Source of the DNA: Mytilisepta virgata
Taxonomy: Eukaryota > Mollusca > Bivalvia > Mytilida > Mytilidae
Reading direction: 5' to 3'
NCBI GenBank assembly: GCA_028015205.1
Contig: JAPWFG010000015.1
Location: forward strand, 6,572,001-6,636,000
DNA: 64,000 nt
Shown: positions 2,337 to 63,822 of the stretch, in pieces
Numbering within the stretch: the first letter of the stretch is position 1
Layout: each line of letters opens with the position of its first letter
The notes under the pieces: model-generated
Seen by the model: the letters and a program-made list of their open reading frames with translations, nothing else
What the model was told of the DNA's origin: nothing
Database searches by the model: none
Translations under genes and position numbers: made by a program

Positions 2337-5300
2337 CTGTAATTATATAACAAAGTTCGACGTGATACTTGGTAATACATTGATGGTGTAATTTTCAGTC
2401 CATTTGTAATGGTACCATGAAGCCTGTATTGCTTAACCTGAACTAGATAAAATAGACTAAAGTTAAAAGAACAAATACTTTGAAAGTGATTATGATTTGC
2501 TGTTTGATCCTGAAATCCTTTAGCTTTTTTCAATCAAATTTTAACCTCCAATTATTGGAATCTCAAACATAAGCCTGCAACATAGCAAATATTGATGATC
2601 AATTTTAACAATGTAAATAATAATCCTAACCCAAATATCAAACAATTACATCGTCCCCTGTTAGTGAGTGACTGCTCACATTAAGCTGGCATTTAAGGAT
2701 GCTCGCTGGTCATGTTTTGGTCTTTTTGTCAGATTTTCGGAATCCTCTGCTTTTATCCATTTCTTAAACATTAAATTTTTTGCCCATGAACCCCCACTTT
2801 TTCTTTTATAATTCAATCATATATACCTTAAAATGGTATTTGACAAAATTTTATCAAATACTTATTATTTTTTCATACATCTTTGAGAGTCTGAAGTTGT
2901 CAATGCAAAGACAATGAAAAATCCAGAGAAAACCCATTTCCTGCAAATTTTCAAGGCCTTATAGCTCTAAAATGAGCACATGAACCTATATTTTTTTCTT
3001 GCTTATTTGTTTACTATTCATATGTTCTCTCAAACTAAAACACCTATTTCAAATCCTATTTATTTCCTATTAGACCAGCGATCATCCGTAATTACTACGA
3101 AAGACAGGAAGGTTATGATGGATATTAAAAAAAAATAAAAATTCTTGACACAAAATCTGTTTGTACATTAAACTAGAGGCTCTCAAGAGCCAGTTCGCTC
3201 ACCTGGACTTAACTTTTCACCTTCAACAGGACTAAAAATTTAAGTGTTGCAGTCAATTTGGCTGGTTTTTCTATAGGGTTCTATGTTAAAATAAGTTTGG
3301 CTGTGGCAGCCATCTTGGTTGACAGTCCAGGTCAAAGGACACATTTCTAAAAGAGAACCATCTAAGGATCATTATTGCTAAGCCTTGTTTCAACTGGCTA
3401 AGAGGTTTCAGACAAGAAGATTTTTGAATGAATTTTCCCATAGGATCCTGTATGAAACTAATCTTGGTTGACAATCCGGGTGATCCGACACAATTCTGAA
3501 AGAGAACCATCTAATGACCAAAGCTGCCAACTTTAGTTTCAATTGGCTCAGAAGTTTCAGATGAAAAGATTTTTGAGTGAATTTCCCATAGGGTCCTATG
3601 TTAAACTAAGTGCAGCTGTGGTGGCCATTTTGGTTCACAGTCCACGAAATCAGACACATTTCTGAAAGAGGACCTTCTAAGGACCATTGCTGCCAAGTCT
3701 GATTCCAACTGGTCAAGTGGTTTCAGACAAGATGATTTTTCAATGAATTTTCCAATAGTGTCCTGTGTTCAACTAAGTTCGTCTGTGGCACCCATCTTGG
3801 TTAACGTCCCGGTCATCAGACACACTTCTGAAAGAGGACCATCCAAAAACCATGGCAACAAAGTCTAGTTCTAATTGCCTTAGTGGTTTAAGACAAGAAT
3901 ATTTTTGAGTGAATTTCCCATAGGGTCCTATGTTAAACTAAGTTTGGCTGCGGCGGCCATCTTGGTTTACAGTCCAGGAAGCTAGAAAAATTTCTGAAAG
4001 AGGACCTCATAAGGACCATTGCTGCAAAGTTTAGTTCCAATTGGTCATGCGGTTTCAGACAAGAAGATTTTACAATGATTTTTACCATAGGGCCCTATGT
4101 TAAACTAAGTTTGGTTGTGGCGGCCATCTTGGTTCACAGTCCTGGTCATCGGACATATTTCTGAAAGAGGACCTCCTAAGGACCATTGCTGCCAAGTCTG
4201 GTTCCAATTGGTCAAGTGGTTTCTGCAAGAAGATTTTTTAAAGAATTTTCCCATATGGTGCTATGATAAACTAAGTTTTGGCTGTGGTGGCCATCTTGGT
4301 TGACAATCGGGTCTTCGGACACAATTCTGAAAGAGAACCATCTAAGGACCATTGCTACCAAGTCTAGTTCTAATTGGCTTAGTGGTTTCAGACAAGAATA
4401 TTTTTGAGTGAATTTTCCATAGGTTCCTATGTTAAACTAATTTCGTCTTTGGCAGCCATCTTGGTTAACAGTACGGCTCATTGGACAAAATCCTAAAAGA
4501 GAACCTCCCAAGGACCAATACTGCCAAGTTTGGTTACAATTGGCCTTGTAGTTTCATAGAAGAAGATTTTTAAAATTCATACCCCCTTTTTTTCTATTTT
4601 TAGTAACAGAAGCCTTGTCGGTTGGAAGTCGTGGATGCCGGACATAATTTGGGAAGGGGCTCACCCAACGACCATTCCCCAAAAGTTTGGTTCCAATTGG
4701 CTTAGTGGTTTCAGAGGACAAGATCTTTAAGTTTATGCCGGACGTTGTCTTCAAAGGGCAAAAACTCCTATAAGGGGTCAATCAATGATTTTGGTCTTGT
4801 TGACTTAGTTGTAGATCTTACTTTGTTGAACATTTTTGCTGTTTATAGTTTGTCTTTATCTATAATAATATTTAAGATAATAACCTAAAACTGCAAAATT
4901 TCCTTAAAATTAACAATTCAGGGGCAATAACCCAACAAAGGGTTGTCCGATTCATCTGAAAATTTCAGGGCTGGTAGATTTTGACCTGTTGAACATTTTT
5001 ACTCTGTCAGTTTTGCTCTAAATGCTTTGGTTTTTGAGATATAAGCCAAAAACTGCATTTGACCCCTATGATCTATTTTTAGCAATGGCGGCCACGTTTG
5101 TTGATGGATCAAAACTTCTGATATAATTTATAAACTAGATACCCTAAGAAACATTCAGTTAAAGTTTGAAGGTATTTTGCCCAGTAGTTTCAGAGAAGAT
5201 TCTTGAAATAGTTTACGACGCTGACGACGACGGACGCTGACCATGACGGACGCCAAGTGATGGCATAAGCTCACATGGCCCTTTGGGCCAGGTGAGCTAA

Positions 5301-8300: not shown

Positions 8301-11300
8301 CAGTCAGAGAACAATTATTCTTCCTAAAAATGGAGAATTTACGGAAGAAATAAGTACTTATACACTCGTTCAAAAGTGAAGAACCAGAAAATCTCGTTCT
8401 GCTGTGCTCCACTCTGGAAAGATGTGAATTTAAAAAATTTGTTGAAGATTTCCTGGTCTTCAATTTCAACTCGTGTAAGAATTTATTAATCTTAGAAAAG
8501 GGTGTCTGAAAGAGGTTTAAGAGATGGTGTTTGATTCTGTTCTTCACTTTTCTTTACGACCTGACTTTGCATAAATTCCTTTGTGTATTGATATTACAAT
8601 GCATGTCTCATTTGTATGATGTAATAAACCTGAACAACACAGGTACATGTACAAGAAAAATACACCAAATAAATTGGATATCAAAAACAAACAACCATTC
8701 GAGTTAAATCTATTATAATCAAAGCATCAAGATATACACTTTACTGCTTTTTAACACTGAAATAACACAATATCAGTTCAAGGTCAGTACTTTAAGTTAT
8801 CCCTGGCATGTTTGGAAGTTTGGAAGGCAAGGAATGCTTTATTCCATAAAACTTTTTGACTGTAGTCGGTGTTGATATTCGACAAAATCTGAAGGGCATG
8901 TATTTCAGTTTTATCTCATTTAAGGATCTATATAGAAACCCACAGACAGTTTCAAAATCATTTCCTGGAAGACAGCACATTTTATGTCTCCTTTGGCTAA
9001 CACAATGAAATCTCAAAACAGTAAAAATCAGAACTGCCTTGTTTCAAAAGTGAGAAAACCTGTTAATGTCATTACAATGTATAATAAATTGTCATCTGAG
9101 ACTTCAGATTAAATATGCTGAAAAAAGTAACCTGGTGAAGCAGCCCTCCAATTGACTGTAAATCCATTATGTGCTATAGATTCATCACTATGGAACCATA
9201 AATAGACTTCATTGGTTGTACTGTTTATAGTGCCACCATTAGGCAGCGCATTGCCACAATACTTTCCAATCCTATGCTGAGAAGCTGTTGGTCCATCATG
9301 AATCTGTAGGTAATCGTAGTTACAATTTGTATGACTCTCTAGGGTGAAGTTAGTAAAGGTCAAAATCAAAATCTGAAAAAACAAAAAGTCAATACCTTAT
9401 ACTAAATTTATACTAAAGATTGAGTCTTTCAATGAACACATGAGCCAGCTGCTTGAAGACTGATTAATTTTTACATGATGGCAGTACTTTAAACATCAAC
9501 AGACAATGAAGGGATTCTTATCCATAATAAATTTCTTACTAAGTACCTTTATCTGCTAGTGTAATTTTTTTGACAAACCTTTGTAGGAGGCACACTGATT
9601 GTCCATGCACAATCCACACCATGTGGATAGGTAATACCAGGTGTAGCAGGGTAGGTCAGGGTACCAGTACTTCCTGTTAGTGATCCACCACAAGCTGGGT
9701 AAAGAAGAAAGATGGAATAAATTTGAATATACTAAATTATTTATAAAGCAGGTGTCGTAAATTATATCAAATAAGCCACAATTTTTTTCCTCCATGAGTA
9801 GCTATGTGGCTAAAAGAACTCGTTGAAGAAAATTGGCTGTTAACGTATGAAAAGTATAAAGGAAGTCTGTCAATCCAGGAACAGTTGTAGTAATTATTAT
9901 CATATGGTACTACTGTGGATTCATTTATTTTCGTGGATACCAATTTTCGTGGATAGAGGAAACAAGAGGCTCTCAAGAGCCTGAATCGCTCACCAGGTAA
10001 ACAATGCACTATAAACTAAATCTCATCATCACCATTCACTAAGGATACCATGTTTACTTTAAAAACCAAATATTGTTGAAATCCGAGCAAGTGTAAAAAA
10101 ATGGCGGGAAAATGGCATCATCATCACCATTCAACTCGGGATACCATGTTTATCTTGAAAGTAGCTTTCATCTTCATTTTCTTTCTATAATTCAGAAAAA
10201 AATAGCAAAAAACAGCATTTTGACCCCTATGTTCTATTTTTAGTAAGAGCGGACATGTTTTTCGACCAATCAAAAATCCAAGCATTAAACTTTTTGCAGG
10301 ATACCCTAAGGAACAATCTTACCAATTTTCATTTGATTTTCAATAGTAGTTTCAGAGAAGAAGATTTTTGAAATAATAACATAAAAAAAAAGCCAAAAAT
10401 GTCAAACAATGAGTGCTGACCACAGCCAGTTTCAAAACTAATTTCACAAAAAATATATAAATATATACATCTAATGAAAGTTATTTTTAAGTACTATTGT
10501 ATATTGAGGTAACATTGAATTTATATTTTAATAAATAGCCATTTAAAAACAAATTTACACGCAATCAAAAGCTTTTTTTCATTTTCTACAGTTTGCCATC
10601 TATAAGGCATCAACAGTTATTTTGACATTTAAGGGACAAAACTTTAACTCCTAAAGGGCTCATTTAAACATTTTGCAAACTAAGGGAAATGCTGTGAAAA
10701 TGGTCAATTTTGATGTTCTAAGGGGAATAACTCCTAAAAGGAATGATCATACAACTTAATAAGTACAAATTTCAAAAAAAAATCAAGAAAAAGGGCAATA
10801 ACTCCTACATGGGTGGTAAAATCTTCTTCAAAATTTCAAAGCAGACTAGATCTTGAGGTGTTGAACACTTTAGCTTCCCATCAGAATTTTGATATCTGTC
10901 ACCATTTTTGAGTTATTTGCAAAAAACTGCAATTTACCCCTATGTTCTATTTTTAGCCATGGCCGCCATGTTTTTTTACAAATCAAAAATCGAAACGATA
11001 GTTTAGTAGCACTCATGCCAAGGAACAACTACACTAAGTTTGGTTGCAATTAAACTTATGGTGTAAGAGGAGTTAACGATTTTATTACAATGAATAAAGA
11101 CTGCAAAAATGGTCAATTTTGACGATCTAAGGGGAATAACTCCTAAAAGGAACGAACCTACAACTTCGATCCTGTTACAAATTTTGTAGATCTTTGTGTG
11201 CCTAGCAATATGAAATTTAAATTTTTCAAATTTCCTTTATAGTATCCAAGATATTGAGCTTAATAAGTGCAAAATTTGGAAAAAATGCAGAAAAAGGGCA

Positions 11301-14300
11301 ATAACTCCTACATGGGTCGTTGGATCTTCTTCAAAATTTCAGGGCAGGTAGATCTTGAGGTGCTGAACACTTTTCCCCTCTGCCAGAATTTTGATATCTG
11401 TTATGGTTTTTGAGTTATTTGCAAAAAACTGCAATTTACCCCTATGTTCTATTTTTAGCCATGGCGGCCATGTTCTTTTACGAATCAAAAATCCAAACGA
11501 TACTTTTGTAGCACATATACCAATTAACAACTGTACGAAGTTTGGTTGCAATTGGTCTTATGGTGTCAGAGGAATTAACGTTTAAAAAAGTTTACGGACG
11601 ACGGACGGACGACGGACGCCAAGTGATGGCAATAGCTCACATGACCCTTCGGGTCTGGTGAGCTAAAAAGGCATTTCGTGGGATACCTAAATTTGTAACG
11701 GAACAATTAAAGCTTGTCATGAATTTAACAAGATTAACAAAATAATTATTTACTCATTAGGTTAAACATGTGTGAAATATATTGACAAAATTGCAATCAC
11801 TTGTCACCAAATACCTCGGGGCATATACATACATATTTTTAATCCGATTACGATCAATAATTTCTGCTTTATTATCTTTTGACAAGATGTTTTTACTGTA
11901 ATTTAGGAGAAAGTCTGTATTGTTTAGGTCTACTTAGGATTAAGATTTTTCTTGAATGTTTGAATAAAAAAAAAACGGAAGTGAATTCCGCGACAATTTA
12001 CACAGTCAAAATCTTTTTAAAGAAAATTGTTTGAGCGTTTATATGTTACCAAAGACAAAATGACATGAAACACTGTATCCTCTGTGGATATAGCTAACTC
12101 ATCATATGTCAGAATTCAAGTACATGCTGTAAAAACGCAATTGTTCAAAACTCCGTGGTTTCAAACTTCAGTGCATTTAAACAAGAGTAAAAATATTATT
12201 TTTCGTTGGATATTTAAATTCGTGGTTTACTGGGACCCACAAAAACCACGAAAATTGGTATACAACGAATATTAATGAATCCACAGTATTTGATATTATT
12301 GCAAATGTCCTGGATGTTCAATACATTGTAATGCAGAGGTGTTTACCCCTTTCTGGTGTTTTCAGTGATGTTAATGATTTTTGTAAGTAATTTGGGCCCT
12401 TTGTCAGTAATTTCAAATTTCTGCATGAACACTACCATAGAGACCCGCCATCAAAGCATCTTATATTGTGTTAAGACTAGAAACAATCCGAGTTTTTATC
12501 ATCAAATGCTTTTCATAACTGGAAAATCAAGCGCAATTACAAAGCTTTATACGACCAGGAATTAAAAAAAAAATTAGTACAAAACCGGAAAGTGTAATTT
12601 CCATAGGTAAATCCGTAATCCGTATTTTGAATCTAAAATCTGGGACAATTACAGAAATTCCGTAATAGTAAACACCTCTGGTAATGGCAATGATCTCGGT
12701 AATTTTCAGCAAACTTCGGAAACGGTATATACTTAACTTATTTTTACAGAAGCAGCATGCATACAAACAATAAAATGGCTTCCAACTTTGGCAAGATATA
12801 TCTATGCAATTCCTGTTTGATATCTTTGGTTTCATTCATTTTCCATCCGTAGGAAACATAATTTGTTGTCACAATCTATTACGGTACAGATATCTTAAAG
12901 TTGAAAAGATGGATTTTGTATACCTTGTCTTTGTTCTTCACAGTTTGTCCCACTATATGAACTTGTACACTGACAATTGTAACCATTCACACCATCAACA
13001 CAAGTACCGCCGTTCTGACAAGGGGAACTAGAACACTCGTTGATGTTTGTTTCACATGTTGTTCCACCAAAACCTGGGTTACACACACATGTGAAAGATG
13101 ATCCTGAATTCTTTAAAAAAAAAAAAAAATGCAGTATCAGAGGATCATTCATGACTTCTACTTTTCAATATCAAAGCACAAATTTCAACTAGAAGTATTG
13201 TGAGCTCACAAAAGTATATCCCGCCTCTATGATTACAATAATATAAAGAAATATACAAGTCCACGTTAGTCTATGGGAATCCCCAAAAATTTCAAAAGAT
13301 ATACAAAATGTGTATTATTGAAATGGTGGCACAGTGTTGATGTCAATACATCAAAAAAATTGCAGTACAATACAAATAAAAATTTGCATCCACAAAGTGT
13401 TACTGTAGTATTACATGCACAAAAATATTAAAGTCCCATAACTCCTGTAAAAATTTGTCAATTCAAAATTGTGGTGTAATAGGATCAAGTACATACGGTG
13501 ACTAAGTTCTACAAAATTTTAACGAAATCTGATCAGCGGTCTCAGAGGAGTTCCGCTGACAAAGTGTTCCTATAGTGTCATATGCAAAATTAGAGGATCT
13601 CAAGAGCCTATATCACTCACCTGGATTTAACTTTTTACCTTGAGCAGGAATAAAAATTTAAGTGTTGCAGTCAATAGGGTTCTATGTTAAACTAAGTTTG
13701 GTTGTGGCACCCATCTTTGTCGACAATCTGGGTGATCGGACACAATTCTGAAAGAGGACCATCTAAGGACCAAAGTTTAGTTCCAATTGGCTCAGTAGTT
13801 TCAGACAGGTAAATTTCCCATAGGTTCCTATGTTAAACTTTGGCTGTGTCGGCCATCTTGGTTCACAGTCCACGAAATTGGACATATTTCTGAAACAGGA
13901 CCTCCTATGGACCATTGGTGCCGAGTCTGGTTCCAATTTGTTAAGTGGTTTCAGACAGGAAGATTTTTCAATGAATTTTCGTATAGGGCCCTATGTTAAA
14001 CTAAGTTCAGCTGTGGTGGCCATCTTGAATGAAAGTCCGGTTCATCGGACACAATTCACAAAGAGGACCATCTTATAAATACCACTGCTACCAAGTCTAG
14101 TTTTAATTGGCTTTGTGGTTTGAGAAAAAAGAACATTTTTGAGAGAATTTCCCAGAGGGTCCAATGTTAAACTGAGTTTGGCTGTGCCAGCCATCTTGGT
14201 TAACAGTCTGGTTCATTGGACAAAATTCTGAAAGAGAACCTCCTAAGGACCATTACTGCCACGTTTGGTCACAATTGGCATTGTAGTTTCATTGAAGAAA

Positions 14301-17300
14301 AAATTTGAAATTCATCTCCCCTTTCTTCTATTTTTAGTAACAGCAGCTGTGTCGGTTGGAAGTCGGGGATGCTGGACATACATTTGCAAGGGGGCCACCC
14401 ACAGACCATTCCACAAAAGTTTGGTCCAAATTGGCGAAGTGGTTTCGGAAGAAAAGATCTTTAAAGGAAAGTTTTCTCCGGATGCTGTCTTTAAAGGGCA
14501 AAAATTCCTATAAGCGATCAATCAATGATTTTGGTCATATTAACTCATATTTAGATCTTACTTTGTTGAACATTTTTGCTGTTACAGTTTGTCTTTATCT
14601 ATAATAATATTCAAGATAATAGGCTAAAACTGCAAAATTTCCTTAAAATTAACAATTCATGGGTAATAACCCAACAAAGGCTTGACGGATTCGTCTGACA
14701 ATTTCACAGCAGGTAGATCTTGACATGATGAACATTTTTATCCCGTCAGTTTTGCTGTAAATTCTTTAGTTTTTGAGATATAAGCCAAAAACTGCAGTTT
14801 AACCTCTATGTTCTATTTTTAGCCATGGTGGTCATGTTTCTCAACGGACAAGAAAATAAAAAACAAATTTTATTCTAGATACCCTAAGGATCATTCAGAC
14901 TAAGTATAGCTGTAATTGGTTAAGTGGTTTCAGAGGAGAAGATCTTTGAAAAAGTTTACGATGGACAGACGACGGATGCCAAGTGATGGCAAAAGCTCAC
15001 ATCCTTTTAGGACAGGTGAGCTAATAATCAGGTTGAAAACTGTCATTGTATACCACAAAGAAAGTAAGTAAAACAACCATATATATTTTACAACTTACTT
15101 GGCATAATGCACCATTCCTGCATGGATTGCTAGCACAAGCACCTGAATTGGGTCCCTGCTGAACACAACCACTGGCCCCTACACCATTTCCTACATAACC
15201 TTGATGACAGGTACACACTCTTCCTCCAAACCCTTAAAAAAAATAATGCCTAAGGCCATGTAAAAAAAATCATTAGATTCTCAGGCCATTGAGGCAGGGC
15301 GGCTCTTTTTTTTTTATTATTATTTTCAAATTCAATCTTCGACCTCCCAATGAAAGCGTCGGCGGTTAGCCCTGAAATTTTCCAAAGGCTGCTTCATCGT
15401 TCGTTTTAATCGATTCCAGCAACTCCCCCAATGTGCACTCCGTCATGTAATCACAATGTATCGTCCATGGTATGACGGTTTTTCCTCCAGAGAGGACTTG
15501 GCATGACACTAAAGATGATGCCATGCTGACGGATGTTTAACAAACAATGTATATTTAAATCACGACACCACGTGATAAAGCGTGTTTACGAAAACGTTTT
15601 GCTGATTAAGATCGCGATCCTAAAAATTACCGGTAACGGAAACAGACGCGAAAAAGTTCCGGGCAGGACTCGGAACTGCCGATTTTTAATTTTATTTTTC
15701 GTATGATAAAAAACAACGAATGCGGCGGGTTTAAGGGACACGCGGCGGGGCCTGAGAAGCTAATAATATATTTTTTTTGGCCTAAATTAATACATGTACT
15801 ATAAGGTTACTCTGGTTCAATTCCTACCCTGGATAAAAATTTCTAACAAATTTGAAATTTATCTTCTACTGTAATTTGAATTGGATATGCTAGTCCATCA
15901 GATGAGGACAAAATATGGCTGTTTCGTATTAAAGGAGAGCAATATCTTTGCCACATGCACTTTCCATGACTATTTTAAGTGAAGGCTATGGTAAAATGGA
16001 GTAAAAAGGGTCACACTTGTACATACCAAATGAAAATCAGTCTAAGTTTGTATAAGTTGTTTCCACATCCACTATGAAAAAGCAAGTTTATAAAAACTTG
16101 AACTGACCTCTTTAACTGTCAGTATTATTGTTCAGAAGTTTGACCTTCCCGATTCTTCACAAAAAAAACCCAACTCATTTATGTCTAATTTTAGTAATGA
16201 CTGGCTTATGACACTCTGATGAGGGAAGAATACTAGTTGAAATTATTGCCCTCAAGTTGGATCAAATTTATTTGAGATTGATGCAACCGATGCCTTTTCC
16301 ACAAAAGTTTATCTTTCATGTAACAATATCAGAATATCTGGAAATCCCTTCAAAAACACTTGAATACACGACTTTTTCATTTTTATTGTTTTTTATTTAT
16401 TAGATTAATATTATTCTGTGCAAGTATTATGTTTTTTTCTTTAGTTGGGGTTTTATGCTGTTTTCAACACATTTGGCTATTTCGTGGCAGCCAGTTTTTA
16501 TTGGTGGAGTAAGCCGGAGTATCCGGAGAGAACCATCGACCTTCGACAATCCTTGTCAATTTAGATCAGAGTGAAAACACCCCACCAAAGGTGAGATCCG
16601 AAAACCTAAGTGTTGACAGGCTAGTGATCATTAGTAGTCATGACGAACCACCTAGACCACTCGGCCACCGAGACCACGCAAGTATTATGGTGGGTTATAA
16701 TATCAGAAAAGAATTTCCACCAAAAGAAATCAATCTTTCACAGATGTGTTAAGTATCCAAAGAAGCATTTTAAACTTGTAATTTTCTATTTTTAAACATT
16801 AATTTTACCTTGATTTTCTGAACAAACAGCCATAGGATGGCATCCTCCATTATTGTTTCCACATAATCCAACCCAAGTACATGTGACACCGTCTCCTTGG
16901 TAACCTAAAATAAATGTGCTGTCATTTCAATTCATTTAGTATACAATAAAAACTTTTACAACCAAATGGATTTTCCATCCACAGTACATGTGACCCCATC
17001 TCCTTGGTAACTAAAACTAAATGTGCATCCATTTCAAGAAATTTAGTATAAATCAAGATGTCTGACAACAACACTGATTTTCCTGTATCAGTAATTAGTG
17101 CCACACATCCACTGTACATTACCTAACAAATAATCAGATCTTCTTCATTTTCAAGTTTTGGCAATTTCCAACAAATTTTGACATCAAGTACAGCTTCGAT
17201 TGAAAGTTCATGGATAGACAAAAAAATTCATAACACACTCCAGCAAGATAAAAAACCATCAAAGAGTTTGAGAAAATGAAGATCTGAACAATGAAAACAA

Positions 17301-20300
17301 TTGTTATATAAAGACTTTCATGTCAGTTTAAAATAACCAATGTATTCCAGTTTGGGCAATAGAGAATCCCATTATATTTCTGTATTTGGGCAGATTATCT
17401 CATTCATTTCTATACCTGCAGGACAAGGACCACATCTTCTTGATCCACGAGTATTGACACATTCCACTCGTGGTACGACAGAACATCCACCATTGTTGTT
17501 GGCACACTCATTAATATCGGTACATGAAAACCCATTTCCGACATAACCTGATGGACATTGCCCACAGTGGAATGTTCCTGGAAGATTGATACATGGAACT
17601 TGTGGATCGGTGGAACAAGCATTTGGTCTCTCTGAACATTCGTCCACATCCACAACACAGGCAGGATCTGATCCCGACTTTTTCCACCCAGCATCACATA
17701 TACATGTGTACTTTGGCTGAAATCAGTAATATTTCTATCTATATTTTTTTTGTACACACAGCTTAAATCTAAAACAATTTTTCAACTAACATTTATGGTA
17801 TCCAGACATTATCATGGCTTAACTTGTATTTCTTTTTTGACCAAAAATGGTCTTATCCAAACTTTTAAAAGAAGAAGTTGTGTTGATACATCTTTCTCAA
17901 GTTAAAACACTTTTTATTGTTTGTATGCTTGTCCATGAATCTGAAGTTCGGTATACTGTATTTCCAATGATTGCCGAGGTCACCGTCATTGCATTATATG
18001 GAACTTTTGTAGGACATTTTGACATAATCATAAAAAAGATGAATAAATTCAGACACGAAATTCCATAATGTAAGCCTGATAAAAAATTTAAAATGTTGTT
18101 AAAAACAGCCTGTATAGTGAAACAAGAGGCTCAGTGGGCTGAGCCTGTATCGCTCACATGGTCATTTTGTTTCACGGACCGGGAAGATTTATGCAAACTT
18201 TGTAAAGGACCTTCCATAGATGCTCCATACCTAAAATCAGTTCATTTGGCTTTACGATTTCAGAGACGATGTTTTAAATTTCCACCAATCAGAACAATGT
18301 AAATGCTCATGGCAGCCATTTTGATTCACGGACCAGGATGATTTTACATTTGGACCAATCAGAACATGAAAATGCTAATGGCGGCCATTTTGTTTCACCG
18401 ACCGGGATGATTTATGCAAACTTTGTAAAGGACCTTCCATAGATGCTCCATACCAAAAATCAGTTTATTTGGCTTTACGGTTTCAAAGAAGAAGTTTTCA
18501 ATTTGGACTAATCAGAACATGTAAATGCTAATGGTGGCCATTTTGTTTGACGGACCGGAACGATTTATCCAAACTTTGTAAAGGACCTTCCATAAAAGCT
18601 TCAGTTCAATAGGTCCACGTGTTTCAAAGGAGAAGATGAAAATGTAAAAGTTTACAGACGGACAGACGAAAGACGACGGACGACGGACGCCAAGTGATGC
18701 TTAAAGCTCACATGTCCTTTTAGGACAGGTGAGTTTAAAACAATGATAAAGGTCGGTGAGCTGTCGAATGGGCAATAAAGTAAATAAACCAAAAGCAAAA
18801 ATGACAAAAAATCAAAACAACAATAAAAAGATAAAAGGATAAACATAAATTTGTGAATACGTATACATCTTTGATATTATCCACATTAAAACTGAAAACC
18901 TACACATACAAACAAACAAACCAATCAACATCAAATAAAAGGCTATGTTCTCTCCCAATTTAACTTTGGTGAATCAATAACTTAACATTGATTAATATTT
19001 CATCTCTGCAAAAACTATTATTATAACCGAGATATCGAAAAATATCTAACCATAGTCAAGTTAGGAAGAGTTACTCAAAAGGTAGTTGGGACAAAATAAT
19101 TATACTCATTAACATCAATGCAATATTTATCATAATCCTATATATACCATGTTTGGTTGTGTACGCTGTACATTTACACAGGTTCCATGGCCACACATCT
19201 CCTGATTGGAGGCTCCCGTACAATCATCATGTCTCTCTGTACACCGTACACCATGCCAATTAGCTGTACATTGGCATCTAAACAATAAAAATAGAGAATA
19301 ATTTACCCAGAGTAAAGATTGTGAGTTAAAAAATTTTTGTGTGTGTATTTTTTCTACTTAGACTGACAGAGTAGACATGAAGCAATGACACATTGAGAAC
19401 GTTAGGTATGATACACACACAAGATCAGTATAAAATGGTCATGGATGAGATTTTACTTGATTAGAGGTCAGATTTCGAAAATTAACATGGAATTTTTAAC
19501 ATTGGAAATTTTATGTTGAAATTTCATAGGAATGCAAACATTCAAGCATTGTTAGGACAGAATCGAGAAGATAGCATGTGTATGCAGATATTTCAATGTG
19601 TTGTATTTACTTAAAATTATCAATGAGAAAACATGTTGGATTATCTACCCATACCAAGTAAAATGGGTTTCAAGGGAGATAAAGACAGTTTAAAGTGACA
19701 TTTCATATTAAATTACTTGTATCTTCTTCCAATAGTTGGTAACTTGCAACAAAATCATGTAATACATGTAGTTTACAAATAGAAAACTTTATAAGTGACA
19801 CATGAAATGTAGGACCCTTCATCAGCCTCTGATATTACTATCAGTATCTGCTTACATGATCCTAACATTAGTTTTAATTTGTTCTTCTCAGACCTATTTC
19901 TGACAGCTTTGAAAGAAAAAGGTCAGAACTGATACTTCGTCATCCATTTCACAACCTATAACAAAGGACATCCAAAAGACGAATTTAGGCTTTAAAGTGG
20001 AAAAAGCAGGTCTGTGTTATGTTCAATTGTTGTTTGCTATCGCGGGCTGTTTCTGTTCACTGAGAAAAGAGGTATACATACTGAACCAGAAGCCATATTA
20101 AACTGCATGCTTAGAAAAAGAATTATGCCGAAAAACTGAATAGAAACAATGATGTTTATAATTTTTTTTAATTCCTATTCAACTTCAGAATTTTTCCATA
20201 TTTGGATTGTTGGTGTCTTCCATTAAAACAAAATAAACAATGGAACCTTACCATTAAGTAAGAAACTTATAACTTACCTAAATCCTCCAACAGTATTAAC

Positions 20301-29300: not shown

Positions 29301-32300
29301 GCCCTTTGAACTTTAAAATTTTGCTGAAATTGCCTTGTAAGCGATCTCATGCCTACATTTTTTGCGGATTTTGATGAAATTCCTATAAAAGATGTGTTTC
29401 AATGGTTTCTCAATCAAGATCAAATTCGAGTGGCATACTGTTATTTTTGGAAGAGTAATTGCCCTTTAATCTTTGAAATTTTGCTAAAATTGCCTTGTAA
29501 GGAAATAATAAGTGTACTGCTTTTCAATTTAAGCAATGCGTGTTTAGATTGAAATTTATTACACTGGACATGACATGTATAAATTGTGTACAAATTTCAG
29601 AAAATTCAACACATTTAGAAAATTTTCTGAAATATTCAACTTTTTATTTTGTGCATACCTGTTTTTACCCCTGTTGTATCTTAATACATGTAGATGTACA
29701 AGTACTAAGCAAATACTATATCATTTAACTAAAATTCTCCACTAAACGAATGTGGCAGGGGACATTCACTGTTTTTTTATTGTAGACTGAACTGGTAGTA
29801 TTGTCCATGGTATGACCTTTTGGGAGCAAATATTGAATTCAAACTCACTGCCATGATTGTTTATCTGCTGTTTATTTACTTTCAGTTTTTGATCAATTTC
29901 ACAGAATGATTGAAATTGAGTCTGGGTTGGCAGATGGTTGACAAATACTTTTGGTGCCAAATTTCTAATGTTATTCTAATGAAAAAATAGTGGAATGACA
30001 GCGATTTTATTCCAGAAATCAAATAAACCCCGCAACTTTTTTTAAGTTGGGCAGCAGTGTTTAAGAGAACCAGTTATTTAAGCTTGGATGGACTTTTTTC
30101 TTTCTTTTTTTTTTTTTTGGTTTTTTTTTTGGCCATAAAAATAAATTGTCTGGTTACCCGACCAACCCTGTTTTCTGGACTTTAAGACCAGTGGGAGAAC
30201 AACATTAAAATCATTTTAAGAAATGTTTAGTACATTATGGTCCTTTTTCCACATTCTAGTGGAAATATTTCAAATTTTTTGTCAACTTTAGGAGGCAGGT
30301 GCCTGCTGTGACTCCACACCTGTAATGTTTAATTACATTACCAAGGCAGACTAGATGCTTTATGCACCAAAACAAATTCCTAGATTCTCCACAGAACTTG
30401 ACATGTGGTAAATGATTTTTAATTCACCTTTCAAATTTCTGAAGTGAAATTAAAGACAATTAAAGACATTTTTATCCAGTAAATAAACACAAATATGAAA
30501 AACAAATAAAAACAGGCTGATAAGGATGAAGAATCTATGATTTAATATTTATATAAATTGTTAACTTACAGCTGTTGTGGTTACGGTTCTTAGCTGTTCT
30601 ATTGTCTGTTTGTTATTTTTCACCTGAAATTTAGAAACAAATAAATTCTTCTGAACAATAGAGGCAAAATCTCTTTCCTAACTTTATTCACCTCAGCCAA
30701 ACAAAAAACGTTTAATACTAGTAAAACTATTCAATAAACTTTAGAAAGAGGACACATATACCTAAGGAGCAATCCAAACAAGAGGCTCCCAAGAGCCTGA
30801 ATCGCTCACCTGTTATATTTGTGTAGATCTTGCATCAGTGTTTATCTTTGCTATTTAATGTGTACCGTCACAATTTTCTCCTTAATATTGATCTGTATGG
30901 CTAAAATATAGAATCCTGAACCCAAATAGATATAGTTGCTAGGGACTTTCTCATCGGTTGCTATGGACTTTTTCAATGGCATGGACTCTTAGCTTCCATT
31001 TTGACTTAAATAGGTAAATTGTAGGGTCCTGAACCCACATATATATGGTTGCTAGGGACTTTTTCATCTGTTGCTATGGGCTTTTTCAATAACACTGACT
31101 CTTGACCTTTCTTTCTGACTTGTACGGGTAAATTATAAGGTCCTTAACCAAAATATATATGGTTGCTAGGAACTTTTTCATAGGTTGTTATGGACTTTTT
31201 CAATGACCTTGACCTTTCTTTTTGACTTGTACGGGTAAATTATAAGGTCCTTAACCCCAATATATATGGTTGCTAGGGACTTTATCATCCTTTGCTAGGG
31301 AATTTCTGATCAGTTGCTATGGACTTTTACAATGACCTTGACCCTTGAACCTCCATTTTACTTGTACAGCTACCATTTAATTTATATCAAGGTATGCTCT
31401 AAACATCTGTGACAATATGTCAGACCATTATTTTCTGTTTATATGTAACTAATCTTTCAAGGGCAAAAACTCCTGTAAGGGGTCAATTGACGATTTTAGT
31501 CATGTTGACTTATTTGTAGATCTTACTTTGCTGAACATTTTTGCTGTTTATATTTGTCTTTATGTATAATAATATTCAAGTTAATAACCTAATACTGCAA
31601 ATTTTCTTAAAATTAACAATTCAGGGGCAATAACCCAAAAATGGGTGGACCAATTTGTCTGAAAGTTTCATGGCAGGTAGATCTTGACCTCATAAATATT
31701 TTTACTACTTGTCTTAATTTAACTGCTTTAATTTTTGAGATATGAGCAAAATGGTGTATTTTCACCTATGTTCTATTTTTAGCCACCGCAGCCATATTTC
31801 TCGATGGACAAGAAAATAAAACATAAAATTTATACTAGATACCCTAAGGATCTGTCAGCCTAAGTGTGGCTGAAATTGATTCTGTAGTTTCAGTTTAAAA
31901 AGATGACCAAAAAAAATGTGAAAAATTGTCTTTAAAGGGCAAAAACACCCATAGGGGTCAGTTGACAATATTGGTCATGTTGACATATTTGTAGATCTTA
32001 CTTTGCTGAACATTTTTGCTGTTTACAGTTTCTCTTTAACAATAATAATATTCAAGATAGCACCCTAAAACTGCAAATTTTCCTTAAAATTAACAACTCA
32101 GGCTCAATAATCCAACAAAGGGTTGACCGATTCGTCTGAAAATTTCACAGCCGGTAGATGTTTACCCTGTGTCAGTTTTGCTCTAAATGCTTTAGTTTTT
32201 GACATATAAGACAAAAACTGCAGTTTACCCCCTATGTTCTATTTTTAGCCATGGCAGCCATGTTTTTCAACCGACAAGAAAATAAAACATAAACTTTTTT

Positions 32301-35300
32301 CTAGATACCCTAACGATCATACAGACTAAGTTGGCTGTAATTGGTTCAGTGGTTTCAGAGGAGAAGATCTTTGAAAAAGTTTATGACGGACGACAGACCC
32401 CAATTGATGGCAAAAGCTCCTTTTAGGACAGGTGAGCTAAAAACGTAATCCATTAGACAAACAAAACACGGGAAGACAAATGAACAACCACAAGCACAAC
32501 AAATAAACAATGAAAACTAAAAAACAATGAACAACATCTTAGATATTGGAACACTGTAACAGTCAATCAATTTGTGATGATGACCGTAAAATTTCCTAAG
32601 TGATGACATCAATTTATCCCTGATAAAACCCTGGTTAAGAAGCTTTTGTGACAGCAGCAATCCTCTTTGTCGAAAGTCATGGTAACTCACGCATGCCCTT
32701 AAAAATCGGATTAGCTGAGAGACGCCACATGCAGGCAATTCTGGTATATTGCTACTCAAGAAGGGAAAGTTAACAATAGGAAAGTCGAAGTCATAAAGTT
32801 TTGTCTTCAGATGTCCCTCATTGTCTATTTCGAGAAACAAATCCAAATATGAAGCGGACTTTGATGTATCTGTGGTATCCTTAATTTCAAGTTCACTGGG
32901 GTAGATGAGATGTAGAAAGTCTTGGAATTTATCGTTATTTAACAACAAGAGGCTCCCAGGAGCCTGAATCGCTCACCTGGTCCTTAAGCTTTAAGGGAGT
33001 CTTTCATGAGCTATTACCCCTATAATGGATCATCTGACAACTTCGACCCAATTCAGACTTTTGTAGAGCTCAATGAGCTGATTGTTTAAGCAAACAACAG
33101 CTTTTCTCTATTGACAACAACTTAATAAGTACAAATTTCAAAAAAAAATCAAGAAAAAGGGCAATAACTCCTACATGGGTGGTTACATCTTCTTCAAAAT
33201 TTCAAAGCAGGTAGATCTTGAGGTGTTAAACACTTTAGCTTCCCATCAGAATTTTGATATCTGTCACCATTTTTGAGTTATTTGCAAAAAACTGCAATTT
33301 ACCCCTATGTTCTATTTTTAGCCATGGCAGCCATGTTTTTTTACAAATCAAAAATCCAAACGATAGTTTAGTAGCACTCATGCCAAGGAACAACTACACT
33401 AAGTTTGGTTGCAATTAAACTTATGGTGTAAGAGGAGTTAACGATTTTATTACAATGAATAAAGACTGCAAAAATGGTCAATTTTGATGATCTAAGGGGA
33501 ATAACTCCTAAAAGGAATGAACCTACAACTTCGATCCTGTTACAAATTTTGTAGATCTTTGTGTGCCTAACAATATGAAATTTAAATTTTTCAAATTTTC
33601 TTTATAGTATCCAAGATATTGAGCTTAATAAGTGCAAAATTTGGAAAAAATGCAGAAAAAGGGCAATAACTCCTACATGGGTCATTGGATCTTCTTCAAA
33701 ATTTCAGGGCAGGTAGATCTTGAGGTGCTGAACACTTTTACCCTATGCCAGAATTTTGATATCTGTTATGGTTTTTGAGTTATTTGCAAAAAACTGCAAT
33801 TTACCCCTATGTTCTATTTTTAGCCATGGCGGCCATGTTTTTTTACAAATCAAAAATCCAAACGATCTTTTTGTACACATAATGCCACTAAACAAATGTA
33901 CCAAGTTTGGTTGCAATTGGACTTATGGTGTCGGACAAGTTAACGTTTGAAAAATTGTTAACAGACGACGACGACAGACGACGACGACAGACGACGACGA
34001 CGGACGCCAAGTGATGGTAAAAGCTCACATGGACCTTTGGTCCAGGTGAGCTAACAACACGTCATCTATATAATTAAAAGTGACATTAAAGGATTGGTCT
34101 AGTTTCTTTTTGTTTTCATATAAAAGACCTTGAATGAAGTCCGCTTCATATGAGTACAGAAACAGATCAGCGAGGAGAGGAGCACAGTTTGTTCCCACTG
34201 GAATGCCAATTGCTTGTTGAAAAATTTGACCACCAAATTAAACAAATATGTAGTCTATGAGAAAATCTAACATGTTTGTAATTTCATCTTCACAATACTT
34301 TTTGTCAAGAATCAGAGTGGTTCTTCACGAAATAAGCCTTTTCTCTAATTAAAACTAGACATTTAAACCTGCGTTTGCCATTTGTCTTTTAAAAAAAACA
34401 TTGATGAACTAGTTGATTCAATCGATATTTTAATTGAGAATGTGGTATGGTAGTATAGAGTGTAGAAAAGTCAAATGTTTTTATACTGTTGCATGTAGCC
34501 AAAGATTTTGATTTTAGATATTGTAGTTAATTTTTTGAGTTTTTAAGAATCCACATCCGACTGACGGCACTGGTGGAATATGATATTTCAAAGTAATTCT
34601 GAAGGCCCTCTTTAATACATGTCAATAAGCATCAAATGTATGGCACATGCAACGTCTTAAATTCAGCTCCTCAATTTGGCAGTGAATAATTGGTGCAAAG
34701 TTTATATTTTTAAAGTAAATATTATTTTAATTGTACATATCATGTTTTTATGAAGTTTATCGGATTATTTTGAAAGTTAAATGACAATAAAAATTATCGT
34801 TTGCAGACGTTCGTTAATCATGATTGATCATGCGCATATAATGTGATAGAACTAATATCCCTTTTCATTGCGCTAATTACATTATCGGTAATTAACGATC
34901 GTTTATTAGACGATATAACACTTGTGAGCTGATATCAGACAGGTGACAATTTAATTAACGGTCGTTTATTATCATTGCAGACATAATTCCTGGTCTCTTA
35001 AAAACATCTCAAACTCTATTAAAATTGTGATTTAGGTATTCATTTTATATAAATATTCATCCATATTTATTATTTTTGTCCCTTATTATTACATTTAAAA
35101 AAAAATAGACATAGTATTTTTTCTTCTGCGGCCGTACGATCGGTATACTGACAAACAGAACGGAGGACTATTCTGACTCCATAACCTCTATAACCATATA
35201 CAAATGTGAAAAATGTATTTATTTAACATATATCTATTCATTTTTATTGATTTTATTGTTAAATTCAACCATTTTAACCTGCAGGCGTATTTAAGTAGGA

Positions 35301-36993: not shown

Positions 36994-37047
<54 letters not shown>

Positions 37048-47165: not shown

Positions 47166-49110
47166 ATGTTCTCTTGTGAGATTTGCAGTAAAGCTTTTAC
47201 CGAGAAGAGAAGCCTGCTTCGCCACCAGAAGACACAAGTTGCTTCGTCTCAGACGGCAACCGTGTCCAGGATCGGTGCAACTTTGAATAAATTGAGCCGT
47301 CACGACATTTTGGAGTTCATCCGGCAGCAGATACCAAGTGGGTGGTCCATTAACTGACAAATGCCACGTTTTATGTCAACAAGTTGGTGGAACACCCAAT
47401 AGGAGCCAGAGTCGTGATACCAGACTTTATTTTGAAAATCCGTGGTATCGTCGCAGTGGTTGGTGGATCCGATGGGCAATGGGCCATATAATGACAACTT
47501 GTGTTTTTTTTCGGTGTTTGGCTGTCCACCTGCCAAGACTCACCATCGACAATATCTTGAACATACAGACATGACCGGCGATGATTTTAAAGGTATTTGT
47601 TTAGACGATTTGGCGTACATCGAACCACTGTTCCAACTAAACATCTGTGTGTACGATTTGCAAGAGATAGAAGACGGTGACATAGCGTCGAGAAGGGTAC
47701 GACGTTCTCCCTACAATTTCCAGGACATCATGAACCTGAACCTGTACGAAAACCATTTCAGTTATGTCAGCGACATGCAGAAATACAGACACAGTTACGT
47801 ATGTTCCAAATGTGACCAGTTGTGGAAGCATGTTGACATGCTTCACAGAAACACGAGACAACCTGCAACGGTGAAGTCCTGTATAAATTTCCCGGTAGAG
47901 TGTACCATACACCACAGACCGCGTTTGAACGTTCGGATGACGAAGGTAAAAGACAGATATTACCCTTACAGAGCCACTTATGATATAGAGGTGATTCTTC
48001 AACCTACAGACAAACCAAGGTCGGATAAATTAGAATGGACCAATCAGCACGTTTTGCTTAGCGTCTCCGTGTGTTCCAATGTAGCGGAGTTTACAGAGCC
48101 AGTTTGTTTCTTGTCCGAAGGAGATAGCAGTGAAGCCGTGGATTCGTGTTTGATCCATTTGACAAAAATCCGTGACAAAGCCTTCGGTCTGTCCGATTAT
48201 TTCACCGTTCCAGACGAGAAGAACAAATTCTGTACGAGTTTATAAAGAAAACATAGTAGGTGGACGCAGCATCGTCTTTCACAGATATCACGAGAAAGAC
48301 AAGACCTTCATCCGTCCTGCGGAATTCGGAGACCCAAAACCGTGTAAGATAATCTACGGCGTGAACGCCAATGCCTTGTACTTGTGAAGCATCATGCATG
48401 ATATGCCAACGGGCCACTTCGTCCGACGCAAGAGCGAGGATGATTTTAAAAGACAGACTCCCGAAGATATGAACGTATGGCCATCGAGTGGTTGGAATGG
48501 GAAGCCAAGAAGACCGGACACCAAATACGTCACCAGGGGAACGACACAGAAAAACTGATCGGACGTGGACGGCTTTTGTAAAGAAACCAATACAGTAGGC
48601 TGCCTGTGGCACGGACATTGTTGTCGTCTGGCTGGTGGAAAGACAGAAAATCCGTTCAACGGAAAGTGCCTGGACGAATTGTACAAGACTATCCAAGAAA
48701 AAATAGAGTACATCATGAAAAACGGCTACCAAGTTAAACAGATGTGAGAGTGTGAATGGGACCGTTTAAAGATAGAAGACACCAAAACTGGCTGGTTGGG
48801 ACAAGAGGACTCCAGGATTGTTCAAGATAGTATTCAGTGGTGACGGGATAATTGCCCTGTGTAACATGAGGTACTTTTTCTTTGGATACGAAAACAAGTT
48901 CAGCTGTTAATGGATCAACAAGAGAACCAACATAAACAAAGAGAAATACATGGACGTTCTCCTATCAAATAACTCTGGCTCCGGAACCAACAGACGGTTT
49001 CCTTCTGTAGACAATCAACTCTACACCTACTTGCAAGAGCGAGCTGGATTTTCATACTTTTACCCAAAAACGTAAAGTTTTGGCGGACGGGGTGTCTACG
49101 ACACCCGTAG
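47166..49110 (+). pseudogene. Decayed type B (protein-primed) DNA polymerase gene, Maverick/Polinton-like
   Basis: Starts with a C2H2-like finger (FSCEICSKAF...LLRHQ), then GARVVIPDFILKIRG, NGPYNDNLCFF, CSKCDQLW and RATYDIE, the last being the Exo I motif of family B polymerases. After about 48230 a block is missing and homology resumes with ENIVGG, NANALYL, VDGFCKETNTV, LLSNNSGSGTN and YLQERAGF, as in the polymerase domain of these elements. At least three frame changes, several stops and an internal deletion show it is dead. The GC content is clearly above its surroundings. No integrase or capsid gene is seen nearby. Confidence 0.78.
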
Positions 49111-50476: not shown

Positions 50477-50953
50477 CAATAAGGGGTAGACAATAAAAAT
50501 GGAAGAAACACAGTAAATTTATATAAGGGATTATATTTGTGGACAACGAAAAGTGAGCGCTAATTGTGGTCTTGAGCATAATAGAGAGGAAAACCTTGGT
50601 TGTTTTCTACAAAACTTCTCATTTGAAAAGAGTAAAAAAAGTTTTGTGAATATCTGTTTATATTTAACAATTCTACACCTATTTCTATAACAGTTGTCAT
50701 GTCCTTTCATGTCATCACTATTTGTCATTGAACTTTGATGCTGCTATTCAATGAAAAAAAAATAATCTTTTTTATTTTTGATATTTTTTATGTTATTTTT
50801 TGTAAGATTATATATCTTTCGTTCAATTAACACCATTTAGAACTATCTGAATTACTCGAATGTTCTTTAAATGGTAAGTCTTCCCTGTGTTCAAACTGGG
50901 TTTTCAGAGATGCTCAGAGCTGTACATATAAAAAGTGAAGCTGTTTTGAAACA

Positions 50954-52386
50954 AGAGGCTCACCAGAGCCTGTATCGCTCACCTGGAGTCTGGTTTTCAT
51001 TGGACAATTAATCAACTATTTGACCAAGTTTGTTGCAATTGGTTCAATTGTTCAGGGAAAATTTGTTGAAGATTTATTTTTCATAAGGTTTAATGTTAAA
51101 ATATGTTCCCTGATGGTGGTAGTCCTGGCAGGAAGTTGACAAAATTGACCAAGAATAAGGGTGAACCTTAAATAAATGTAACAGAACCCGACCTCAAATT
51201 ACACAAACCAATAACTCCTAAACAGAATTTGGGATTCCCTTCAAAATTTCAGGGTATGTAGATCTCAACATGGCAAACATTTTTCAAATTTACATTTCAC
51301 TACTATCTCAAATAGTTTTGGAGATAAATGAAGAAAAATGTTAAATTTTGAAAATTTGACGAAAAAAGGGCAATAACTCCTAAATGGGTTTTGGGATTTC
51401 CTTTAAAATTTCGGGGTATGTAGATCTCAACATGGCAAACATTTTTCAAATTTACATTTCACTTCTATCTCAAATAGTTTTGGAGATAAATGCAAAAAAT
51501 GTTAAATTATGAAAATTTGACGAAAAAAGGGCAACAACTCCTAAATGGATTTTAGGATTTCCTTCAAAATTTCAGGTTAGGTAGATCTTGTCATGCTGAT
51601 CAATTTTATCCCATGTCAGATTTTTTATATCTGTAACGGTTTATAAAAGTTATAAGCCAAAAACAACACATGCACCCCTATATTCTATTTTTAGCTACGA
51701 CAGCCATGTTTTATGTCAGATCAAAATAAATTGAGGATCGTTTGTAGAGGACATGTCATAGGTCATTCCTATTAAGTTTCAAAACAATCGGCCCAGCGGT
51801 TTCTGAGGAGAAGATATTTGAATAAAAAAAAATTTGAAAATTTGACAAAAAAGGGCAACAACTCGTAAATGGGTTTTGGGATTTCCTTTAAAATTTCAGG
51901 GTAGGTAGATCTCAACATGGCAAATATTTTTCAAATTTACATTTCACTTCTATCACAAATAGTTTTGGAGATAAATGACGAAAAATGTTAAAATTTTGAA
52001 AATTTGACGAAAAAGGGGCAATAACTTCTAAATGGGTCTTGGAATCTCCTTCAAAATTTCAGGGTAGGTAGATCTTGTCATGATGATCAATCTTACTACG
52101 TGTCAGATTTTCGATATCTGTAACGGTTTTTGAGTTATTAGCAAAAAACAGCAATTTACTCCTATATTCTATTTTTAGTATACTGGCCATGTTTTTCGAC
52201 GAATCAAAAATCCCCAAATCCGTTCTATGCAGGGTACCCCAAGGAACATTCATACCAAGTTTGTTTCTAATTAGTCAAGTAGTTTCAGAGGAGAAGAGTT
52301 TTGTATAATTGTTAACGACGACGACGACGACGACGACGGACGCCAAGTGATGGCAATAGCTCACATGGCCTTTGGCCAGGCGAGCT
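50954..52386 (+). mobile_element. HCE copy 8
   Basis: Starts AGAGGCTCACCAGAGCC and ends TGGCC-TTT-GGCCA-GGCGAGCT. Interior modules carry GGGCAATAACTTC, GGGTAGGTAGATCT and CTATATTCTATTTTTAG. The tail is (ACG) repeated about nine times (52314-52340). Flanks TGAAACA and AATAAAA. Confidence 0.82.
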
Positions 52387-62492: not shown

Positions 62493-63676
62493 AGGTCACC
62501 TGGTCAAAGGTTATCTTATCAATTGGCGTTCGTCGTCTGTCCACAATTTTCAGAAAGATCTTCTCTGAACCCTTTGGCAGGTAACCCTCTTTCAGAATAG
62601 AATCATAGAACCCCGCAATTCAAGATGTCCTCCGGATCCGAGGACATAGGTGTGCTTATTAATTCATCATTATATCTTTAACCGGATTTCCAACATTTCG
62701 ATCTCGAGCTCTGCTGATTAGTTTTCAGTCAACGAAATGGCCATAGTGCTTTAAATTTATTGAGGTGTTTTGTGATAAATTTTATTTTAACATTTTAATT
62801 TTCTAACACTGGGGCATTCAAGGGTCAAATATTGTTTAAAGGTTCCTCAGACAGTCCTCGCTAAATTCTATCGATCAGAACTAAAATGGTCGATAGAGTC
62901 GAACATAGTTTAACGTAGAACCCCACGGGAAAATTCACTTTAAAATCTTTTTCTGTGAAACCAGCGAACAATTGGAACCCAACTTGACACGATCCTAAGT
63001 CGGTCCTCTGTCAGAATTGTATCCAATGTAAGATGGCCGAAAATAACCCTATGGGAAAATTCACAAAGAGACTTCTTGTTTGAAACCAATTAGCCAGCTG
63101 CAACCCAACTTAACAGCAATATATGGCCCTCCATAAGAGTTATATCAAATTATCTCCTCCGCAATCTAAGATGACCACCACAGTCGACCTTATGGAAAAC
63201 TTTTCATGAAACCAGGGAGCCAATTGTAACGCAGCAACTTAGGTCATCCTCTACCGGATAACAATGATTTTCAATGAACTCGCCTATCATCCAAAATAGC
63301 CACCAGAGCTGAACATAGAACCCGATAGGACCCAATAGGAAAATTCAATTCAAAGGCTTCTTGCGTGAATCCCGTGAGCCTTAATTGAAACTTACTTAGC
63401 AGCAGCGGTTTTTAGATGTGTCTGTATTAGAATTCTCTAATTACCTCGCTCGCTTGGCAATGTTGGTTATGTGGTACTCTTTCTGACCTATGGGAAACTT
63501 CTTAAAAAAATATTGTCTGATATCACTTCGGAATGCTGCTAGTAGCAACGGTCCTTAGGGGGTTCTCTTTCGTACTTGTATCCATGGCAACCAAAATTGA
63601 CATGTGCAAACAATTTATTCTGTTTTAAGTCTACAAATGATATTCAAATGACCGATAGAGGCTCATAAGAGATTCT
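62493..63676 (-). mobile_element. HCE copy 9, inverted, decayed
   Basis: Plus-strand left end AGGTCACCTGG and right end GAGGCTCATAAGAGATTCT correspond to a degenerate HCE. Modules with CTATGGGAAAATTCA, CAACCCAACTTAACAGC and CCATAAGAGTTATATC recur every 150-170 bp. Hairpins no longer pair well and no target duplication is seen, so it is the oldest copy here. Confidence 0.6.
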
Positions 63677-63822
63677 AGTTACACTGTTTGTCACGAAATC
63701 ATACACTGACAATATTAAAAAGTGGTTTCAAAGGAATGTAAACTGTTGTTCGATTGAGCGACCTGTAGATATAAAAATAGCATTCAGATGTCGTATTTTA
63801 ATTATTTTAATATAGAACACAC

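What the first reader, a model, noticed from the sequence alone, without database searches (positions are those of the whole stretch)
32941..34059. A hairpin-capped non-coding element caught inside a reverse transcriptase frame, with exact ends
Seen: the RT sequence reads through YIDDVL on one side and NNDKFQDF on the other, interrupted by 1105 bp flanked by AACAACA on both sides. Removing the insert plus one AACAACA gives a continuous frame. This fixes the element as AG...CT and shows that a sequence with no coding capacity has moved. The nine copies in this window can then be bounded by the same ends.
Basis: seen in the sequence. Interest (0 to 1): 0.85.

Follow-up and report, generated by a model that had tools for sequence, protein, structure and literature searches.

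The report
Non-coding Helentron inside a retroelement gene
A 1.1-kb stretch of DNA with no genes has jumped recently into an old reverse transcriptase gene of what looks like a bivalve genome; it is a stowaway of a known kind (a non-autonomous Helentron), and the seven-base repeat that seemed to mark its ends is most likely a coincidence.

Summary
The sequence facts are right: an old reverse transcriptase (RT) frame is interrupted by 1105 bp flanked by AACAACA. The reading of them is not. AACAACA is not a target-site duplication (TSD), and the element is not AG...CT. In 39 near-identical copies from the same 1.03-Gb genome, 0 of 39 show the 7-bp repeat, and matching equals chance (3.74 against 3.80 of 7). 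Four paralogous empty sites are T-runs without a 7-bp duplication. On the minus strand the anatomy (TT, subterminal inverted repeat folded into a hairpin, GTC microsatellite, repeats, second subterminal repeat, 3' palindrome, TTG) is that of a HINE, a non-autonomous Helentron. The 40 copies compared (best matches to c6) differ by 0.56% on average. Helitron_like_N frames are present at 150 scored places, but the partner was not identified.

The parts
32946..34054 (-). HINE (non-autonomous Helentron) c6, 1109 bp, read on the minus strand as TTAGCTC...GAGCCTCTTG; 32944-34052 is an equivalent phase
   Evidence: 39 young copies share these ends; removal leaves the L088-type empty site
32941..32947 (.).
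34053..34059 (.). AACAACA, right copy; RT target sequence (TTG codons) plus the element's TT
34022..34052 (-). 5' subterminal inverted repeat plus complementary IR, forming a 13-bp hairpin
   Evidence: DNA fold -12.3 kcal/mol, 0 of 200 shuffles as good; 96.8% of cells paired, 7 cells changed on both sides
33961..34006 (-). GTC-type microsatellite (GAC on the plus strand)
33121..33948 (-). central repeats: two units of about 325 bp, about 502 bp apart, 85% identical
32971..32983 (-). 3' subterminal inverted repeat, 13 nt, 92% complementary to the stretch at 34039-34051
   Evidence: I6
32950..32965 (-). 3' palindrome, near the element's 3' end
   Evidence: 90.5% of cells paired over 9 copies, covariation not informative; the c6 fold prefers another pairing and is no better than shuffles
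34055..34237 (-). RT target gene, N-terminal piece ending YIDDVL
32520..32942 (-). RT target gene, C-terminal piece starting LNNDKF
3171..5298 (-). HINE copy c1 (166-bp core repeats)
9961..11664 (-). HINE copy c2, 93% identical to c6 over 0.94 kb
13588..15022 (-). HINE copy c3
18121..18735 (-). HINE copy c4 (615 bp)
30777..32438 (-). HINE copy c5
50950..52386 (-). HINE copy c7; its core holds the empty-site paralogue of locus L048
42980..44770 (+). HINE copy c8
62493..63680 (+). HINE copy c9, degraded

Best explanation
The insert is a non-autonomous Helentron (HINE) of 1109 bp, read on the minus strand. It has no protein of its own. A Helentron Rep/helicase made elsewhere in the genome would recognise its two ends (subterminal inverted repeats, 5' hairpin, 3' palindrome), copy one strand by rolling circle and join the single-stranded copy into a T-rich target (consensus TTT^TTT; here TTG^TTG in the RT frame) without duplicating target bases. 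Shown: the anatomy, the shared ends, the absence of a 7-bp TSD, the T-run targets, the near-identity of many copies, and the presence of Helitron_like_N reading frames in the genome. Inferred: the rolling-circle step, the single-stranded intermediate, and that one of those reading frames is the partner.
For: 39 copies at 98-99% identity to c6 (40 full-length places scored of 2926 first-look candidates, c6 among them): TTTTT before AGCTC in 36 of 39; after GAGCCTC, TTGT in 39 of 39, then T in 36 of 39; flanks beyond differ. Reader-register 7-mers: 0 of 39 match fully, own mean 3.74, cross mean 3.80, permutation p 1.0. Four paralogous empty sites (L048 in c7's core; L036 in L060; L060 in L036; L061 in L056) are T-runs of 6, 8, 6 and 9, with net gains of 3, 2, 2 and 1 T and no 7-bp duplication. 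RT paralogues: of 28 empty ones, 23 by script plus L078 by eye have the 19-nt site; L088 equals the 1109-bp-removal site in 19 of 19 bases. The 5' hairpin shows compensatory changes. HINE anatomy in print: PMC7492417 and PMC4067079. Helitron_like_N: 150 places scored of 317 candidates, open frames up to 2892 aa.
Against: The 39 young copies show no such excess (one reaches 6 of 7). In one search one of the seven lengths tested just outside the element (6) gave p 0.02, with 0 of 39 exact. One RT paralogue (L069) has the short, single-AACAACA site, so a pre-existing 3-bp deletion at the c6 site cannot be excluded from the RT alone. 35 of 39 copies have TT on both sides, so a duplication of 1-3 T cannot be told from T owned by the element. 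Covariation in the 3' palindrome is not above shuffles, and its fold is not clearly better than shuffles in three copies tried (65, 15 and 48 of 200 as good). No matching end was found in four sampled 6-kb stretches upstream of Helitron_like_N.
Confidence: 0.91

Rival explanations
1. Cut-and-paste (MITE-like) element AG...CT with a 7-bp TSD AACAACA; the RT copy had already lost one codon at that spot.
For: Exact 7-bp repeat at c6; 7 of 7 also at c8 and 6 of 7 at c4; permutation p 0.0024 for eight copies, 0.02 for nine. One of 28 empty RT paralogues (L069) has the 16-nt single-AACAACA site, and this RT copy has two other in-frame losses.
Against: 0 of 39 young copies show it, matching equal to chance. 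The two sides have different conserved bases: [TA]G on the 3' side, TT on the 5' side (eight copies). Four empty sites show no 7-bp duplication. The inverted repeats found are subterminal, not at AG...CT.
Confidence: 0.03
2. Canonical Helitron read on the plus strand: a hairpin followed by CTAA (CTRR) at the 3' end.
For: On the plus strand the right end is a hairpin followed by GGTGAGCTAA. Oyster Helitron-like elements with 5' TC, 3' CTAG and A^T sites are reported (PMC7992393, passages).
Against: No 5' TC (the plus-strand left end is AAC[AT]AGAGG or a variant in 9 of 9 copies); insertion is in T-runs, not at A^T; subterminal repeats and a GTC microsatellite are Helentron/HINE traits.
Confidence: 0.03
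3. A HINE as described, whose target choice is also helped by resemblance of the target to the element's own 3' end (CTTGTT), giving pseudo-TSDs in some copies such as c6 and c8.
For: c6 target TTGTTGTT, c8 flank TAGTTTTT beside a CTAGTT end, c4 flank TTGTTTTA beside a CTTGTT end.
Against: No such matching in the 39 young copies, so chance in T-rich flanks may suffice.
Confidence: 0.03

Closest known systems
[quoted passage not shown] 2020, PMC7492417; abstract, sections 7 and 9 and passages seen)
   Same: 5' subTIR with complementary IR, GTC-type microsatellite, central satellite-like repeats, 3' subTIR then palindrome, no TSD, T-rich targets, related ends with different cores
   Different: This family reads AGCTCACCTGG...; sequence relation to Cg_HINE was not tested, because the paper's supplementary consensus tables could not be read here
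DINE-1 / HINE-Mo, non-autonomous Helentrons (Thomas et al. 2014, PMC4067079; sections 5 and 6 and passages seen)
   Same: subTIR 2-4 nt from the 5' end, palindrome near the 3' end, TT targets, Ts on both ends that cannot be assigned, empty sites without duplication
   Different: Other host lineages; autonomous partners with matching ends were found there and not here
Pearl / CvA / DTC84 elements of bivalves (passages in PMC5139131 and PMC7492417; original papers not read)
   Same: Short modular non-coding bivalve elements with internal tandem repeats; Pearl was later re-assigned to non-autonomous Helentrons (PMC7492417 passage)
   Different: Pearl central repeats are about 160 bp (PMC7492417 passage); c6 has two units about 502 bp apart. 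No sequence comparison made

Membership tests
HINE (non-autonomous Helentron) | No coding capacity | tested here: met
   Longest stop-free run in six frames of the 40-copy consensus is 77 codons
HINE (non-autonomous Helentron) | Subterminal inverted repeats of about 11-15 bp | tested here: met
   13 nt, 92% complementary, 32971-32983 and 34039-34051
HINE (non-autonomous Helentron) | IR complementary to the 5' subTIR close by (DINE-1/Cg_HINE type) | tested here: met
   13-bp hairpin; 96.8% of cells paired and covariation score above all 500 shuffles, but pairs with a double change reached by 41 of 500; c3 and c5 have deletions in the 3' arm
HINE (non-autonomous Helentron) | Palindrome near the 3' end | tested here: met
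   Recognisable in 9 of 9 copies, with mismatches in c3 and c9; 90.5% of cells paired against at most 65.1% when slid; covariation and folding energy inconclusive
HINE (non-autonomous Helentron) | Microsatellite and central tandem repeats (common, not obligatory) | tested here: met
   33961-34006 and 33121-33948
HINE (non-autonomous Helentron) | No target-site duplication | tested here: met
   0 of 39 young copies with the 7-mer; four empty sites; 1-3 duplicated T inside a T-run cannot be told from T owned by the element
HINE (non-autonomous Helentron) | Insertion at TT / T-rich sites | tested here: met
   Empty sites T6, T8, T6, T9; TT on both sides in 35 of 39; c6 target TTG^TTG
HINE (non-autonomous Helentron) | Ends shared with an autonomous Helentron (Rep/helicase/endonuclease) | tested here: inconclusive
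   Helitron_like_N at 150 scored places; no matching ends in four 6-kb stretches upstream of the domain
Canonical Helitron | 5' TC, 3' CTRR, insertion A^T | tested here: not met
   CTAA does stand at the plus-strand right end in most copies, but 5' TC and A^T do not
TIR transposon / MITE | Fixed-length TSD and terminal inverted repeats | tested here: not met

The most novel reading that the evidence does not exclude
The family is transposing now: a star-like burst of near-identical copies, moved by one of the long open Helentron-type reading frames still present in this genome, so that insertions such as c6 should be polymorphic between individuals. A live animal Helentron with a known substrate would allow the single-strand, no-TSD integration model to be tested directly.
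Probability: 0.4. Interest if true: 0.55.

Novelty: new member of a known kind. Interest (0 to 1): 0.35.

Why it matters
It corrects a plausible but false duplication call. A coding frame with many paralogues (40 scored of 4421 first-look candidates) works as a ruler: it gives the empty site almost to the base and supports insertion without a TSD. It also points to a recently active HINE family beside long open Helitron/Helentron-type frames; the C. gigas genome paper, by contrast, found no autonomous copies there and infers inactivity (PMC7992393, passages).

Tried and rejected
TSD in other registers over 39 copies (starts -20 to 0 on one side, 0 to 14 on the other, lengths 4-8): the best exact counts were 7, 3, 1, 1 and 1 of 39 for lengths 4 to 8. 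Canonical Helitron orientation rejected (5' TC and A^T absent). Other collections: four end patterns in viral contigs gave 1, 0, 0 and 12 loci, none like the element when read or blasted (one 42-bp match of c4 to L003 not followed). Genome contigs gave none, then one cyanobacterial MAG locus (L014) that I did not examine. Protein-derived RT patterns found nothing in viral contigs. Pfam on eight window frames found nothing at 0.01; four RT homologues gave RVT_1 below its cut-off; no PDB match at 0.01. Text searches for end sequences: none; one search found 102 papers, of which 30 were listed, none about bivalves by title. That no paper describes this exact family rests only on those and on the Helentron, pearl and MITE searches. 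One search (Penelope-like elements in bivalves) gave two listings, neither read. A first structure string for the 3' palindrome was mis-indexed and repeated correctly. An alignment of six hairpins was made but not counted; the count used all eight, in which MAFFT placed c3 and c5 imperfectly. 'Penelope-like' for the RT is recall, not a test.

Full report
What is there. Four joins were compared. Against a profile built from the 120 listed homologues of 7927 hits, the 1109-bp join scores 342.6 bits and the 1112-bp join 336.7.

Why the seven bases mislead. In the window, nine copies share AAC[AT]AGAGGCTC at the left and GTGAGCTAA at the right, with departures in c3 (left), c4 and c7 (right) and c9 (both). 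So AACAA on the left is element sequence. In HINE orientation (minus strand for c6) the element runs TT-AGCTCACC ... GAGCCTC-TTG. Against this, c6 and c8 match 7 of 7 and c4 6 of 7, more than random pairing of the flanks gives (p 0.0024 for eight copies; 0.02 for nine).

The whole genome (1,034,323,453 bases, 109 contigs; the window is G000:C15:6572001-6636000) answered: 40 full-length places, c6 among them, scored of 2926 first-look candidates, the other 39 at 98-99% identity. I fetched these 39 with about 300-bp flanks; 39 of 39 could be parsed. Before AGCTC stands TTTTT in 36 of 39; after GAGCCTC stands TTGT in 39 of 39 and then T in 36 of 39. Just outside the element as I draw it, exact repeats of length 2, 3 and 4 occur in 35, 20 and 3 of 39, no more than cross-pairing gives (they are mostly Ts), and none of length 5 to 8; length 6 had a permutation p of 0.02 on partial matches. 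These copies look too young for duplications to have decayed: mean pairwise difference 0.56%, c6 0.63% from consensus, 78 private against 12 shared variants. They were, however, chosen as the best matches to c6, so the low divergence is partly selection.

Empty sites. Blasting the flanks among the fetched loci and the window found four paralogous empty sites: L048 in the core of window copy c7 (GCCC T6 GTC), L036 in L060 (CTC T8 ATC), L060 in L036 (GC T6 GTTTATC), and L061 in L056 (GGC T9 ATG; here only 15 bases of 5' flank match before the T-run). The occupied sites have 3, 2, 2 and 1 more T than the empty ones, counting one A in L036 as a former T. The simplest account is an element TTAGC...CTCTTG inserted within the T-run. 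A duplication of one to three T cannot be told apart from T owned by the element; Thomas et al. likewise could not say how the Ts are shared between the ends (PMC4067079 section 6). L052 abuts another HINE directly (CTCTTG|TTAGCTC), as expected for insertion into that element's 5' T-run.

The RT site. Searching with the RT's C-terminal flank gave 40 scored places of 4421 candidates, 30 cut out and examined. Of these, L062 is the window itself, L063 carries the same left junction with the right flank about 1.1 kb away (a duplicate or alternative haplotype on C3, 100% over 501 bp of the right flank), and 28 are empty. By script, 23 of 28 have a 19-nt site (commonest GTTATTTAACGACAACACG); L078 also has one by eye. 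L069 has 16 nt (single AACAACA), L091 13, L085 5; L077 could not be parsed. Removing 1109 bp from c6 leaves GTTATTTAACAACAACACG, identical to L088. The usual site has a TCG serine codon where c6 would have TTG, a change expected at a CpG (inference). At protein level 120 of 120 listed homologues have a residue there; a second, truncated RT in the window (about 37155-37345) has one too, by my reading. The c6 RT copy has two other in-frame losses (alignment), so a lost codon is not impossible in itself; the family evidence decides.

Structure. The 5' end folds as a hairpin in three copies tried (13 bp in c6 and c1; 0 of 200 shuffles as stable for c6 and c1, 1 of 200 for c8). Over eight copies 96.8% of cells pair and 7 cells are changed on both sides; no shuffle of 500 reaches these or the covariation score, though 41 of 500 reach the number of doubly changed pairs and 163 of 500 the number of pair types. 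The 3' palindrome pairs in 90.5% of cells but gives no covariation beyond shuffles, and its fold is not clearly better than shuffles (65, 15 and 48 of 200 as good in c6, c1, c8). A GTC microsatellite and central repeats complete the HINE plan described for oyster (PMC7492417 sections 7 and 9) and mite and fly elements (PMC4067079). Cores differ between copies while ends are shared, as reported for Cg_HINE.

Mechanism. Shown: many near-identical copies of a non-coding unit with fixed ends, no 7-bp duplication, T-run targets. Inferred from established knowledge of Helentrons: HUH Rep nicking, rolling-circle copying, single-strand integration. The genome holds at least 150 places with Helitron_like_N (150 scored of 317 candidates, all over the cut-off; open frames up to 2892 aa, a few with a stop inside the match; 0 of 14 control genomes). 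Four 6-kb stretches upstream of such domains showed no matching end (one weak motif hit in L094 taken as noise), so the partner remains unidentified.

Host.

Noticed in passing
37155-37569, minus strand: A second, diverged RT of the same type (YLDDILAVSNDDF by my reading), broken by frame changes, with a (TA)n tract at 36995-37045 just downstream.
   Followed up: partly
L063 (G000:C3:38218500-38220471): A near-identical copy of the interrupted RT with the same left junction on another contig: segmental duplication or unpurged haplotype.
   Followed up: partly
G000, PF14214 places such as C11:28782954, C6:11907952, C7:22365240: Many long open Helitron_like_N frames with repeated scores and lengths (1849, 2398, about 2890 aa), suggesting several recently active autonomous Helitron/Helentron families.
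   Followed up: partly
47442-48245: A 267-aa open frame without a Pfam match at 0.01; unassigned.
   Followed up: no
9900-9960 and 11667-11760; 12246-12288: Copy c2 sits beside a CGTGGAT-type repeat with an inverted relative at 12246-12288.
   Followed up: partly
20936-21198 and 49646-49779: A 54-bp tandem repeat, 4.9 copies, 99% matches; and an interstitial TAACCC (telomere-like) array of about 23 units, 74% matches.
   Followed up: no
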